Source: Chryseobacterium lathyri (GTDB taxonomy: Bacteria > Bacteroidota > Bacteroidia > Flavobacteriales > Weeksellaceae). Taken from it: a stretch of DNA of 64,000 nt. Positions 2,711 to 61,305 of the stretch are shown here, in pieces. The DNA lies in contig NZ_QNFY01000008.1 of NCBI RefSeq assembly GCF_003290185.1, forward strand, positions 124,001 to 188,000, given 5' to 3'. The stretch's first letter is position 1, and each line of letters opens with the position of its first letter. A program made the position numbers and the translations under genes. The notes beneath the pieces are model-generated. The model did not search any database. It had not been told where the DNA came from and saw only the letters and a program-made list of their open reading frames with translations.

Positions 2711-4360
2711 TTATTTTCTCGTCACTCTCAGTAAAATCACTAAAACCAATATAACAGAAAAAACAAAGCCTAAAACTGCAACTAAAGACATTTCACCGAT
2801 CCGTGGACCTGATTCTGAAACAAAAACAATAGCTGTGGCAATAATATTGGCCCCCAGAACCATAGCTAAAATTAAATTGACAATACTGGATTTAATTAGT
2901 TGATTGGTTTTTTCAATATTTTTAATTTCGCTGGATACGGTGAATTTATTATCATCGAGCTTCTGAAGCACAGATCTCAGCTCTTTAGGAATTTCATCTA
3001 CATTATCTGTGAAATTCATCATCCGGTCCATCCCGGTTTTTAAAAGATTTTTTGGCTTGATCTTTTTCGTCAGGATTTTTCTGGTATAAGGATGCAAACT
3101 CTTCACAATATCCAGATCGGGATTGATTGTTCTTCCGACACCTTCTATTAAACTAATCCCTTTAAACAGAAGATAAAAATAGTCCGGCATGTAAAGCCTG
3201 TTATCCTTCAGAATATCCTTCATTTTATTGATGATCACCTGAACATTAATATCCTGCAGCGATGAGCTGTGAACAAAATTTAAAATATCTTCTACGTCAT
3301 TTTCAAACCTTCTTTCATCAGGAATTTCGTAGCTGACTGCCATTTTTTTGAGATAGCGGACAATTTTATGTGGATTTTTAGCCACAAAACTTACAATCAG
3401 ACTTTCAAGAATTTCCTTATCATTAGGCTGGATTTTTCCTACTGCACCGAAATCTATAAAAACAATTTTGCCATCCTTTTTTACCAAAATATTACCGGCA
3501 TGCGGATCAGCATGGAAAAATCCGTAATCCAGAATCTGGGAAACAAACAACCTCAAACCTACTTCGGATACTTTTACAGGATCGATATTATGGGCTAAAA
3601 GAGAAGCTTTGTCGGTTACCTTAATCCCGTCAATAAACTCCATGCATAGAATATTGTTGTTGGAATATTCTTCATAGATCTTCGGAACATATGTTTCCTT
3701 ATTATTCTTAAAATTCCGGACAAAATGCAGAATATTTTCTTTTTCGTTGATCAGAGAAACTTCTTCCAGTAAAGATTTCTCAAAAGTAGAGATCGCCTGT
3801 TTCAGATTGAGCTTTTCTCCAATTTCAGAATAAGCAGAAACCAGCTTTTCCAGATCTTTTATGAGAAGCAGATCATCTTCAATAACGGTCTGTACATCAG
3901 CTTTTTTGAGTTTGAGAATCACAGGACTTCCATCCATCAAAACCGCTTTATAAACCTGTGCAATAGATGCTGTGGCTAAAGGTTCTTTCTGGATTTCCTG
4001 AAAATGATCTTTAACAGATATATTGAATTCATTTTCCAGAATTTCCTCTACATCCATATCCACCGTATCCACCTTGTCCTGAAGTCTCTGCAACTCCTGG
4101 ATGAGCTCAGGCGGAAGCAGATCTTCCCTGTTGCTGAAGGTCTGACCAAGCTTTACAAATGTAGGTCCAAGCTCTTCCAGTACCAGTCTGATCCTCTCAT
4201 ATACTGTCCCTTTAGAAATGACCTCATCCGGATCAACAGAAACCGGTTCCTGCTTATTTCCTGTATTCATCCTTGCCAGCATATCTTTAAACCCGTATTT
4301 ACTGAGTACGGAAATAAGCCTGGCTGATCTTTTCAGTTTTCGTTGCTGCTTGTCAAACAT
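2711..4360 (-). CDS. ABC1/UbiB (AarF) family atypical kinase
   Basis: 549 residues. The UbiB-family KxGQ-type motif appears as FVKLGQTFSNREDLLPPE in the N-terminal third, followed by ATASIAQVYKAVL (the Ala-rich nucleotide loop), HADPHAGNILV (catalytic loop) and FIDFGAVG (DFG metal-binding motif). Two C-terminal hydrophobic helices (about 495-520 and 525-545) anchor it in the membrane. In other bacteria this family supports isoprenoid quinone synthesis; Flavobacteriia make menaquinone, so the exact target here is inferred, not shown. It is a single gene flanked by a repeat-filled spacer downstream. Confidence 0.9.
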   Translation of the reverse strand: MFDKQQRKLKRSARLISVLSKYGFKDMLARMNTGNKQEPVSVDPDEVISKGTVYERIRLVLEELGPTFVKLGQTFSNREDLLPPELIQELQRLQDKVDTVDMDVEEILENEFNISVKDHFQEIQKEPLATASIAQVYKAVLMDGSPVILKLKKADVQTVIEDDLLLIKDLEKLVSAYSEIGEKLNLKQAISTFEKSLLEEVSLINEKENILHFVRNFKNNKETYVPKIYEEYSNNNILCMEFIDGIKVTDKASLLAHNIDPVKVSEVGLRLFVSQILDYGFFHADPHAGNILVKKDGKIVFIDFGAVGKIQPNDKEILESLIVSFVAKNPHKIVRYLKKMAVSYEIPDERRFENDVEDILNFVHSSSLQDINVQVIINKMKDILKDNRLYMPDYFYLLFKGISLIEGVGRTINPDLDIVKSLHPYTRKILTKKIKPKNLLKTGMDRMMNFTDNVDEIPKELRSVLQKLDDNKFTVSSEIKNIEKTNQLIKSSIVNLILAMVLGANIIATAIVFVSESGPRIGEMSLVAVLGFVFSVILVLVILLRVTRK

Positions 4361-4596: not shown

Positions 4597-4800
4597 TTAT
4601 CCTACTACTTTAACATTGTCTGCTTCAGGTCCTTTTTTACCTTCTTTAATCTCAAATTCTACTGCCTGTCCTTCTTTTAGAGATCTAAGGCCTGAAGACT
4701 GAATGGCTGAATGATGGCAAAAAATATCGTTTCCGCCTCCGTCTGGTGTAATAAAACCAAAACCTTTTGTTTCGTTAAACCATTTTACTGTTCCTGTCAT
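4597..4800 (-). CDS. Cold-shock protein, CspA family
   Basis: 67 residues, the standard CspA length. A single OB-fold with RNP1 as KGFGFI and RNP2 as DIFCHH, beginning [12 protein letters not shown]. It binds single-stranded RNA or DNA and acts as an RNA chaperone. It is monocistronic, with its own terminator (4543-4570) and a leader of roughly 25 nt after a candidate promoter (TTTG, 20 nt, TATCTTCA) on the minus strand near 4825-4855. A poor match at the last two promoter bases is the only oddity. Confidence 0.96.
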
Positions 4801-4989
4801 TATATTTTATTTAAATTGATCAGTGAAGATAGTAAATTTTAAGAATATCCTCAAAAAAAATATATATTCTTAACTGATTTTTTTCAAATCCCTGGAAATG
4901 CTAAAAGAAAAAAAAATTACATTCCTGGTGTTATTTAATGGATTTTTTTATCTTTATACCTATCAAACTAACCTATAAAATATTAAAAA

Positions 4990-5154
4990 ATGAAAAATTT
5001 ACGTAACAACAAACTTTCAAGGGAGCAATTAAAAGGAATCAATGGAAGCGGTATTATTATCGGAAACTGTTCAAATGAATGTTGTCCTACTGACGGAAGA
5101 CCAAGATGTCCAAGACTGATCTGCCCTGCCGTGGTATGCCCTCAGTATTTGTAA
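4990..5154 (+). CDS. Double-glycine-type leader peptide with six-cysteine core (bacteriocin-like)
   Basis: A 54-residue ORF starting at the ATG at 4990. The N-terminal 21 residues look like a secretion leader: KLSREQLKGINGSG, matching the LSxExLKxIxGG pattern of peptides exported by peptidase-containing ABC transporters. The core is rich in Cys, Pro and Arg with cysteines at 27, 31, 32, 40, 45 and 50. A second gene of the same design lies at 61123-61305. A palindromic terminator follows at 5221. No transporter or modification enzyme is nearby. Candidate roles are bacteriocin, signalling peptide or other secreted small peptide; activity is unknown. Note the leader ends GSG, not a clean GG. Confidence 0.75.
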   Translation: MKNLRNNKLSREQLKGINGSGIIIGNCSNECCPTDGRPRCPRLICPAVVCPQYL

Positions 5155-5176: not shown

Positions 5177-5198
5177 AGAGCTGATGAAATTCAGCTCT
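5177..5198 (+). terminator. Hairpin after the Cys-rich peptide gene
   Basis: AGAGCTGA and TCAGCTCT form a perfect 8-bp stem around TGAAAT, 22 nt after the peptide stop. It is followed by TCTTCTT rather than a pure T run, so it may be an RNA-stabilising hairpin ahead of the stronger terminator at 5221. Confidence 0.5.
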
Positions 5199-5220: not shown

Positions 5221-5254
5221 AAAATATCCTATTCAATTGAATAGGATATTTTTT
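5221..5254. terminator. Bidirectional terminator, perfect palindrome
   Basis: AAAATATCCTATTCAA is followed directly by its exact complement TTGAATAGGATATTTT and more Ts. It separates the peptide gene from the convergent hydrolase gene. Confidence 0.85.
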
Positions 5255-5271
5255 CTTAAATTATAATTTTC

Positions 5272-6780
5272 TTATTTAAGATAGGTTTCATACAGATCTT
5301 TTCTGCGGTCATTCATTACCTGAACAGAGCCGTTATGATGAAGATCTTTAAGCAGATTCAGATCCACATCTACAATAAGGGTCATTTCTGTATTGGGAGT
5401 TGCTTCCCCTTTTATTGCATTGGAAGGAAAGGCAAAATCTGAAGGGGTAAATACGGCAGCCTGCCCAAACTGGATATCCATATTGTTTACTCCCGGAAGA
5501 TTCCCTACGCAACCGGCGATAGCGACGTAACATTCATTTTCAATAGCTCTTGCTGCTGCACAGTGCCGTACCCTGATATAAGCATTCTGGGTATCGGTAA
5601 GATAAGGTACAAAAAGGATTTTCATGCCCTGATCTGCCAATATTCTCGGCAGCTCGGGAAATTCTACATCATAACAGATGACAAGGCCAATTTTTCCACA
5701 GTCGGTATCGAAAACCCGGATCTCATTTCCGCCTTTCATTCCGTAATATTTTCTTTCATTCGGAGTGATGTGGATCTTCCGGTATTCATCGATCCGGCCG
5801 TCACGGTGAAGCAGATAACTCACGTTATACAAATCGTTATGATCATGATCAAAAACAGGCATACTTCCGGAAATAATATTGACGTTGTAGCTGATGGCCA
5901 GTTCGGAGATTTTATTCTTAATATCCTCACTTAATTTAGCCAGCTCTATCATACTGTCTCTTTCTGAAAGCTTATTGAACGGCGCCAGCAACGGGGTATT
6001 GAACAGTTCCGGGAAAAGAACAAAATCGGATTTATAATCACCCATTACATTGACAAAAAACTCTACCTGCTCATAAAATGCATCGATATTTTTAAAATGC
6101 CTCATCTGCCACTGTACCAGTCCAAGACGGATAATGCTATCCTGCATGGTGTTTGGCTTTTTGCTGTAGTAGATGTTATTCCATTGCAGCAAAACGGCAT
6201 TTTCCAGAGAGGATTCATCTTCGGGAAGGTATTTTTTAAGAATCTTTATCGGAAGGAAATTATTGGAAAGCTGAAAAGACAGTACGGGATCGTAAATTTC
6301 CTTATCTCTTACTCTTCTGATGTATTCTCTCGGGGAGAGCTCGTCGCTGTATTTATGATAGTTCGGGATTCTTCCACCCAAAATGATGGATTTGAGATTA
6401 AGCAGTTCACATAATTCTTTTCTGGCATCATACAATCTTCTTCCCAGACGCAGCTCGCGGAATTCGGGGTCTACAAAAACTTCAATCCCATAGAGTACAT
6501 TTCCTGTGGAAAGATGGGTATTGAAGGTATAATTCCCTGTAATATCGACATAGGTATGATCGTCTCCGAATTCGTCATAATTCACAATAATGGAAAGTGC
6601 TACAGCAGCCAGTTTTCCATCTACTGTGATGCAGATCTGACCTTTGGGGAATATTCTGGTGAGCTTTTCAATGCTCTTTTTAGACCAAATAGATTCAGAC
6701 ATCTGCGGATACGCGCGTTTCATTGTTACTACCAGTTCATCATAATCCTGAAGCGTCAGGGCTCTTGTTTCTATTTGCAT
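5272..6780 (-). CDS. Fusion of GNAT acetyltransferase domain and carbon-nitrogen hydrolase
   Basis: 502 residues. The N-terminal ~210 residues are a GNAT fold: PEFRELRLGRRLYDARKEL near 105-123 is the acetyl-CoA pyrophosphate loop. Residues ~215-502 are a nitrilase-superfamily amidohydrolase with the Glu-Lys-Cys triad visible as FPELFNTP (E258), YRKIHITP (K335) and LVICYDVEFPE (C369). Such fusions occur across Bacteroidetes and proteobacteria with no settled substrate; the hydrolase half suggests an amide or N-acyl substrate and the GNAT half an acyl transfer on the same molecule, which is inference. A monocistronic gene reading away from a small membrane protein gene. Confidence 0.9.
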   Translation of the reverse strand: MQIETRALTLQDYDELVVTMKRAYPQMSESIWSKKSIEKLTRIFPKGQICITVDGKLAAVALSIIVNYDEFGDDHTYVDITGNYTFNTHLSTGNVLYGIEVFVDPEFRELRLGRRLYDARKELCELLNLKSIILGGRIPNYHKYSDELSPREYIRRVRDKEIYDPVLSFQLSNNFLPIKILKKYLPEDESSLENAVLLQWNNIYYSKKPNTMQDSIIRLGLVQWQMRHFKNIDAFYEQVEFFVNVMGDYKSDFVLFPELFNTPLLAPFNKLSERDSMIELAKLSEDIKNKISELAISYNVNIISGSMPVFDHDHNDLYNVSYLLHRDGRIDEYRKIHITPNERKYYGMKGGNEIRVFDTDCGKIGLVICYDVEFPELPRILADQGMKILFVPYLTDTQNAYIRVRHCAAARAIENECYVAIAGCVGNLPGVNNMDIQFGQAAVFTPSDFAFPSNAIKGEATPNTEMTLIVDVDLNLLKDLHHNGSVQVMNDRRKDLYETYLK

Positions 6781-61122: not shown

Positions 61123-61305
61123 TTAGTAGCAGATACAGCAGAGTATTCTGTCCGGAGTACAGGCATCACCTACTCCCGGTGTATTGGAGATAACACCACC
61201 AGCCGGTCCACACAACGTATAACAGTTGACAATAGGCCTGATTCCTCCGTTAATTTTTTTTAATGCTGATCTGTTAAGATTCTTTGTTTGTAAAAAGTTT
61301 TTCAT
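61123..61305 (-). CDS. Double-glycine leader peptide with six-cysteine core (bacteriocin-like)
   Basis: 60 residues. The leader LNRSALKKINGG (residues 10-21) matches the L-S/N-R-x-x-L-K-x-I-N-G-G pattern of the gene at 4990 and ends in a clean Gly-Gly, the cleavage site for peptidase-containing ABC exporters. The core (22-60) has cysteines at 28, 32, 49, 56, 57 and 59 and Gly/Pro-rich middle residues; the spacing differs from the first peptide. Candidate promoter TATATTTA about 25 nt upstream. No maturation or immunity gene nearby. Secreted peptide; activity unknown. Confidence 0.8.
   Translation of the reverse strand: MKNFLQTKNLNRSALKKINGGIRPIVNCYTLCGPAGGVISNTPGVGDACTPDRILCCICY

What the first reader, a model, noticed from the sequence alone, without database searches (positions are those of the whole stretch)
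4990..5154. Orphan 54-residue GG-type leader peptide with six cysteines
The leader matches peptides exported by bacteriocin-processing ABC transporters, and the core is short and dense in Cys, Pro and Arg. The gene has hairpins after it but no modifying enzyme, exporter or immunity gene nearby. It could be an antimicrobial or a signalling peptide whose export machinery is elsewhere.
Basis: partly seen in the sequence, partly recalled or inferred. Interest (0 to 1): 0.72.

Follow-up and report, generated by a model that had tools for sequence, protein, structure and literature searches.

The report
Conserved exported six-cysteine peptide of Chryseobacterium
A tiny gene makes a six-cysteine peptide with an export tag; it is one of about forty such peptides in this Chryseobacterium genome, most likely sent out by one shared pump, and its active part is unusually well conserved across the genus.

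Summary
The ORF is real and as described, but it is not an orphan. Its leader belongs to a multi-copy family: 29 own-genome hits over the curated cut-off, 49 at E up to 10 (weakest partly chance). Of 42 peptides read, 40 have core cysteines and 38 of those an even number. The full peptide occurs in 139 of 173 genus genomes. Its core (dN/dS about 0.06) is more conserved than its leader (about 0.36), unlike an arms-race bacteriocin. In 48 of 60 loci examined an ABC1-kinase gene lies upstream, and a nitrilase gene downstream in 46. In one clade (18 loci) it lies beside a disulfide oxidase, with a C39-peptidase ABC exporter on the stretch in 14. The window's genome has that oxidase-exporter operon on another contig, with other leader peptides in it. 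The oxidase models as a Cys-less C39-like domain fused to VKOR and DsbA-like domains, suggesting it captures the leader. Best reading: a secreted three-disulfide peptide, probably cut after Ser20 (34 aa), handled by one shared system. Killing or signalling is open. Closest known: bacteroidetocins. New variant of a known kind.

The parts
4949..4956 (+). Bacteroidetes-type -7 promoter element candidate (TATCTTTA), 41 nt before the ATG
   Evidence: TAnnTTT[ACG] lies 30-70 nt upstream in 78 of 103 copies versus 8 of 103 at 100-140 nt and shuffle mean 21.3, maximum 31; no -33 TTG support (7 of 103). The consensus TAnnTTTG is recalled.
4990..5154 (+). Whole precursor gene, 54 aa
   Evidence: homologues in 139 of 173 genus genomes
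4990..5049 (+). Leader, residues 1-20, cleavage predicted after Ser20
   Evidence: register with leader_Chryseo; double-Gly motif GG/GA/GS and L(-12)/L(-7) in PMC6363468; the Glu(-8) given there is Gln here
5050..5151 (+). Predicted mature peptide, 34 aa, six cysteines
   Evidence: six-Cys spacing kept in the best copy of 90 of 90 loci; calculated [M+H]+ 3654.69 with three disulfides
5177..5198 (+). Terminator-like hairpin
5221..5252 (.). Perfect palindrome with flanking T/A runs, probably a shared terminator between convergent genes
   Evidence: read from sequence
2711..4360 (-). ABC1-type kinase gene, usual left neighbour
   Evidence: Pfam ABC1; upstream of the peptide in 48 of 60 loci examined, 158-1,855 nt away
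4597..4800 (-). Cold-shock protein gene, optional neighbour
   Evidence: Pfam CSD; found in 9 of the 48 loci of this arrangement
5272..6780 (-). Nitrilase-family gene, usual right neighbour
   Evidence: Pfam CN_hydrolase; downstream in 46 of those 48 loci, the other two ending at a contig edge; 41-3,939 nt away, median 87
61123..61305 (-). Second leader peptide in the window, 60 aa, six Cys, a different core
   Evidence: in 68 of 173 genus genomes

Best explanation
The gene encodes the precursor of a secreted, disulfide-stabilised peptide. It appears to be transcribed alone from its own promoter. Its N-terminal leader is recognised in trans by the C39 machinery on contig C7: a C39-peptidase ABC transporter (PCAT) with an HlyD adaptor, and a VKOR-DsbA oxidase whose Cys-less C39-like domain would hold the leader. 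The PCAT cuts after Ser20 and exports the 34-residue peptide, whose six conserved cysteines pair into three disulfides. It is a conserved member of a repertoire of about forty leader peptides sharing that system. Shown: gene, leader family, conservation, even cysteine counts, operon linkage in another clade of the genus, existence of the operon here. Inferred: export, cleavage site, disulfides, leader capture by the oxidase. Role: I lean slightly to antibacterial action on neighbours outside its own kin (about 0.4) over a conserved signal (about 0.3) or an envelope or metal-related role (about 0.2).
For: Leader family hit; 29 own-genome leader hits over the cut-off. 40 of 42 leader peptides read have core Cys; 38 even, 2 odd, binomial 7e-10. 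Twelve of the 60 wide loci are not at the ABC1-nitrilase site; all 12 have the VKOR-Trx gene close by, as do six loci fetched later, five of which I chose because hit coordinates already showed it; PCAT appears on the stretch in 14 of the 18, partial in 3. The own-genome operon VKOR-Trx / leader peptide / PCAT / HlyD is at C7. P0002 model: residues 1-108 match PCAT1 peptidase (9azl Z 10.4, rmsd 2.7, 105 aligned) and LahT with leader (6mpz Z 10.2, rmsd 3.1, 108 aligned); 139-279 VKOR (4nv5 Z 14.0); 333-497 DsbA-like (7jve Z 13.8); no Cys before 175. All 12 genomes without P0002 at E 1e-40 also lack the peptide and have few leaders (0 in 10, 1 and 4 in two; median 12.5 in 36 genomes with it). 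Core dN/dS 0.06 versus leader 0.36.
Against: P0001 itself is 0.3 bits under the leader family cut-off. Residue 20, the predicted -1 position, is Asn in 16 of 94 sequences, which is not a standard GG/GA/GS end, and Gly21 is nearly constant (91 of 95), so a cut after 21 is possible. Position -8 is Gln, not Glu. The genomes without the oxidase are nearly one clade (3 changes on a nitrilase tree), so that co-occurrence is few independent events. 22 genomes have the oxidase but no P0001. A sequence-only profile comparison of the oxidase N-terminus with C39 domains found nothing; the model is of middling confidence (pLDDT 64, block means 43-78 in that part), and an unrelated membrane bundle (connexin, Z 10.5) scores as high against another part. 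Four of the 18 loci show no PCAT in the stretch fetched. Other strong C39 transporters exist in the genome, so the partner is inferred. The peptide model is poor (pLDDT 57), so disulfide pairing is unknown. No transcript or product was seen.
Confidence: 0.62

Rival explanations
1. Conserved signalling peptide: a secreted pheromone-like ligand read by a receptor common to the genus, exported by the same system.
For: Core more conserved than leader, usual locus kept in 48 of 60, 139 of 173 genomes, no recognisable immunity gene beside it, co-conserved with two other peptides: 103 of the 104 genomes with both have P0001 too.
Against: I saw no receptor or regulator recurring beside it in either genomic context (not searched systematically). 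Six cysteines in 34 residues is more than usual for known peptide pheromones (recalled). The same machinery would serve about forty different cores.
Confidence: 0.3
2. Classical narrow-spectrum class II bacteriocin with an immunity partner elsewhere.
For: Leader and PCAT export, thiol oxidase as in bacteroidetocins, for which no immunity protein was found either (PMC6671954); NCBI names the leader family bacteriocin-like.
Against: Similar cores across species (60-100% identity of the best copy in 90 loci), strong purifying selection, no recognisable linked immunity gene; killing close kin would kill carriers.
Confidence: 0.25
3. Enzyme-modified RiPP: cysteines or backbone modified by an unlinked enzyme such as the single MNIO-family protein.
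For: One MbnB/TglH/ChrH-family protein exists at C1:98427; Cys-rich precursors are typical substrates of that family (recalled).
Against: The nearest leader hit on that contig is about 32 kb away; the linked enzyme in the operon clade is a disulfide oxidase; even Cys counts fit disulfides.
Confidence: 0.07
4. Metal-binding or envelope microprotein that only resembles a leader peptide.
For: CC and CP motifs, genus-wide conservation.
Against: Leader register with dozens of peptides, operon linkage to the exporter in one clade.
Confidence: 0.08

Closest known systems
Bacteroidetocins (Bacteroidales class II bacteriocins)
   Same: GG-type leader, Cys in the core, C39-type ABC transporter plus a dedicated thiol oxidoreductase, no immunity protein found (PMC6671954: section 7 read, other passages seen).
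   Different: Bacteroidetocins A and B have 4 Cys, 42-aa cores and a four-gene region with a 5-TM protein; here 6 Cys, a predicted 34 aa, an unlinked gene, a C39-like/VKOR/DsbA fusion, HlyD, and about forty candidate substrates. No sequence test against their cores was run.
NCBIfam NF047798 leader_Chryseo, 'bacteriocin-like protein'
   Same: Same 18-residue leader; residues 1-19 match.
   Different: A leader model only; it does not describe this core. P0001 is just under the cut-off.
Many-substrate double-Gly RiPP systems (Prochlorococcus MIT9313, 30 substrates, a passage of PMC6363468)
   Same: Many leader-tagged substrates with diverse cores for one type of exporter.
   Different: Those are enzyme-modified RiPPs (the lanthipeptide class is recalled); here the linked enzyme in the operon is a disulfide oxidase.
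C39-like domains (CLD) of toxin exporters
   Same: Degenerate C39 fold thought to recruit substrate (PMC6363468 abstract).
   Different: Here fused to a VKOR-DsbA oxidase instead of a transporter (model).

Membership tests
leader_Chryseo (NF047798) | Score over the curated 23.5-bit cut-off | tested here: not met
   23.2 bits; same-locus orthologues in G109 (40.2), G172 (38.4) and G051 (38.1) exceed it
PCAT substrate with double-Gly leader | L(-12), L(-7) and G-[GAS] at -2/-1 | tested here: met
   L9, L14, G19-S20; motif from PMC6363468. In 16 of 94 relatives position 20 is Asn
PCAT substrate with double-Gly leader | Glu(-8) of the ComA-type consensus | tested here: not met
   Gln13 here; Glu in 22 of 95 relatives; consensus from PMC6363468
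PCAT substrate with double-Gly leader | Cleavage and export by a C39 transporter | not testable with these tools
   genetic linkage in 14 of 18 loci of one clade only
Bacteroidetocin family | Peptide beside thiol oxidoreductase and PCAT | tested here: inconclusive
   not at this locus; seen in the operon clade, with HlyD; a 5-TM gene was not looked for
Bacteroidetocin family | Sequence similarity of the mature peptide | not tested
   their sequences were not fetched
Bacteroidetocin family | Killing of Bacteroidetes through BamA | not testable with these tools
   no assay
Class II bacteriocin | Antibacterial activity, linked immunity | tested here: inconclusive
   no recognisable immunity gene linked; activity not testable
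Disulfide peptide | Even, conserved cysteines | tested here: met
   six-Cys spacing kept in 90 of 90 best copies; 38 of 40 own-genome peptides with Cys have an even number. Disulfides themselves not testable here
C39-like domain in the oxidase P0002 | C39 fold without catalytic Cys | tested here: inconclusive
   for: Z 10.2-10.4 over 105-108 residues, no Cys before 175; against: sequence profile comparison negative, middling model
MNIO-modified RiPP | MNIO gene beside the precursor | tested here: not met
   the one MNIO hit is on contig C1, the precursor on C8

The most novel reading that the evidence does not exclude
Chryseobacterium runs a genus-wide peptide-secretion apparatus in which a pseudo-protease-tethered oxidase (C39-like/VKOR/DsbA) hands about forty unlinked leader-tagged disulfide peptides to one PCAT; P0001 and its two companions (the CSQACCPPPG and GGQLCL types) form a conserved core trio that acts as a shared signal or public good across species, while the rest of the repertoire turns over.
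Probability: 0.3. Interest if true: 0.82.

Novelty: new variant of a known kind. Interest (0 to 1): 0.6.

Why it matters
It turns an apparent orphan into the most widespread of the four leader peptides whose spread I checked, within a large candidate repertoire of secreted peptides in a common environmental genus, and gives a testable partner system. A leader-binding pseudo-protease fused to a disulfide oxidase would be a new way to couple export and oxidation. The strong conservation of the core makes its target or receptor a tractable question.

Tried and rejected
Orphan gene: rejected by the own-genome leader hits; note that at E up to 10 the same model also rings in 8 of 14 control genomes, over the cut-off in none, so the weak tail of the 49 is partly chance; at E 0.01 it rings in 0 of 14. 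Mobile element: no match in 72,556 plasmid records. Known solved relative of the peptide: only a chance hit, E 8.9, and a poor model that I did not search with. PADLOC: nothing for P0001, P0002, P0004. Rfam around the gene: nothing. A -33 promoter element: not supported. Sequence-only proof of the C39-like domain: failed. Empty-site test: of 34 peptide-negative genomes 31 had the nitrilase; 30 loci were read; ABC1 lay in the flank in 7, gap 19-391 nt in six and 1,350 in one; in 23 no ABC1 was found in the roughly 1.5 kb fetched; none of the 30 showed a leader peptide by my pattern. In the literature searches (open-licence papers only; listings and abstract starts seen; one search listed 12 of 171) I saw no description of this peptide or of a C39/VKOR fusion. 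Of PMC10352776 and PMC10734526 I saw passages only.

Rows dropped before counts: 7 of 49 leader hits for which no DNA was fetched; 16 of 120 P2 genomes and 4 of 109 P3 genomes as weak, with thresholds chosen after seeing the lists (15 of those 16 P2 hits seem to lie on P0001-type copies). The 95 unique sequences were gathered with a pattern that favours a CC..DG motif, so the constancy of those columns is partly built in; without that pattern the six-Cys spacing still holds in 90 of 90 best copies and CCPxDG in 89, while four other loci of the operon clade have CCPPPG instead. Genomes for one search were 34 peptide-negative plus 14 peptide-positive ones that I picked. The nitrilase tree lacks the operon clade.

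Full report
OBSERVATION. The ORF at 4990-5154 (+) is as described: 54 aa, six cysteines. Two of 123 ORFs of 40-80 aa in the window match the leader pattern; both also have at least six Cys, and no other ORF does; 20 block shuffles gave 0 of 2,343 with the leader pattern. NCBIfam leader_Chryseo ('bacteriocin-like protein') matches residues 1-19 at 23.2 bits, cut-off 23.5; Pfam has nothing. In the register of that leader the cleavage motif is Gly19-Ser20, an accepted double-Gly variant (PMC6363468, passages). Against this exact site: residue 20 is Asn in 16 of 94 relatives and Gly21 is nearly constant.

NOT AN ORPHAN. The window's genome (4.86 Mb, 56 contigs) has 29 hits over the leader model's cut-off and 49 at E up to 10; at that loose limit 8 of 14 control genomes also ring, none over the cut-off. 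I could read 42 of the 49: 40 have core Cys, 38 with an even number (4, 6 or 8), 2 odd, 2 without Cys (binomial for 2 or fewer odd of 40 is 7e-10). This parity points to disulfides across the set.

CONSERVATION. P0001 is found in 139 of 173 genus genomes at E 1e-8. In 90 loci, all chosen for a hit, the best copy keeps the six-Cys spacing in 90 and CCPxDG in 89, at 60-100% identity. A pattern-based collection holds 103 copies, 95 unique, with Arg11, Gly19, Val48 and Pro51 also constant. Pairwise dN/dS is about 0.06 in the core, 0.13 in the core without the Cys positions, and 0.36 in the leader (89 sequences, 3,826 pairs; synonymous sites partly saturated, pairs not independent). In the family search matches fall in two of 33 genera: 126 of 296 genomes, four of them in the second genus; a few of the 122 in the first are matches to a paralogue only. 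Named relatives are Chryseobacterium, with C. oranimense DSM 19055 identical, plus one Weeksellaceae MAG, among 80 loci kept of 83. For comparison the second leader peptide of the window is in 68 of 173.

PLACE. In 60 loci fetched with wide flanks, 48 have the ABC1 kinase gene upstream, and 46 of these have the nitrilase downstream; the other two end at a contig edge. The cold-shock gene is there in 9 of 48. Distances vary: 158-1,855 nt to ABC1, 41-3,939 nt to the nitrilase (median 87). The other 12 sit elsewhere, beside a VKOR-thioredoxin gene; in eight of them looked at gene by gene it is shared by all eight, with a C39 ABC transporter and HlyD in most. Six more loci were fetched later, five because hit coordinates already showed the linkage. 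Of these 18, all have the VKOR-Trx gene within about 1.5 kb; PCAT appears in the stretch in 14, partial in 3. In 14 of the 18 two further peptides (CSQACCPPPG type, P2, and GGQLCL type, P3) stand beside it (with L299 completed). P2 and P3 have strong orthologues in 104 and 105 of 173 genomes, both in 104, and 103 of those 104 also have P0001. P3 lay within 1.5 kb of P2 in 25 of 30 loci by pattern.

THE SYSTEM IN THIS GENOME. Contig C7 carries the same operon: P0002 (VKOR 146-272, Thioredoxin_4 345-492), leader peptide P0004 (31.4 bits), P0005 (C39, ABC membrane, ABC ATPase), P0003 (HlyD). Other C39 hits: a C2 transporter beside what reads as a radical-SAM gene, C14:57489 beside precursors with a different leader, and two weaker ones. 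No leader_Chryseo hit lies in the stretches fetched around these four, so C7 is the likely partner. P0002 is in 161 of 173 genomes at E 1e-40; the 12 without it all lack P0001, but they fall almost in one clade, and 22 genomes have P0002 without P0001. The 12 have 0 leader hits in 10, and 1 and 4 in two; 36 genomes with P0002 have a median of 12.5.

THE OXIDASE. The model of P0002 (pLDDT 64) matches C39 peptidase domains over residues 1-108 (Z 10.2-10.4), VKOR over 139-279 (best Z 14.0) and DsbA-like proteins over about 333-502 (best Z 13.8). There is no cysteine before 175, so it should not be a C39 protease. A sequence-only comparison failed, and an unrelated connexin row reaches Z 10.5 on the membrane part. 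I infer a leader-binding domain, as proposed for C39-like domains in toxin exporters (PMC6363468 abstract).

HOW IT MOST LIKELY WORKS. Own promoter (a TAnnTTT element 30-70 nt upstream in 78 of 103 copies), leader capture in trans, oxidation, cleavage after Ser20, export by PCAT-HlyD. The last four steps are inferred. The role is open: the machinery resembles that of bacteroidetocins, for which no immunity protein was found (PMC6671954, section 7) and which hit BamA (PMC8546649, abstract and passages); but the conservation of the core speaks against kin-directed warfare.

VERDICT. Observation right; 'orphan' wrong; interpretation partly right. New variant of a known kind.

Noticed in passing
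window 61123-61305 (-): A second leader peptide, 60 aa with six Cys in the core, in 68 of 173 genus genomes.
   Followed up: partly
L136, G000:C1:66184-66496: Two adjacent leader peptides, orthologues of those standing next to P0001-type genes in the operon clade; one is a paralogue of P0001 (59% identity).
   Followed up: yes
L131 (G000:C7:272000-291900): The C7 operon holds a further leader with a nine-residue tail without Cys (C7:283064), perhaps decayed, and another leader peptide upstream of the oxidase.
   Followed up: no
L133 (G000:C14:49000-67000): Another PCAT cluster with two acidic precursors of a different leader, what reads as a nucleotidyltransferase-like gene, and what reads as HlyD: a separate peptide system.
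   Followed up: no
L295-L298: Another genus of the family has a relative with a longer leader, nearly identical in four genomes, with no match to the C7 oxidase, PCAT or HlyD in the 14 kb fetched around each.
   Followed up: partly
L121, L299, L302: Operon-clade loci carry eight to ten leader peptides by my pattern, mostly with different cores, around one exporter.
   Followed up: no
L299:6455-6613: The P0001-type copy of this genome reads Ile where the start Met is expected; a different start codon or a decayed start.
   Followed up: no
L046, L062, L090: Tandem second and third copies of the peptide with diverged cores, among them CPDVxCP variants.
   Followed up: partly
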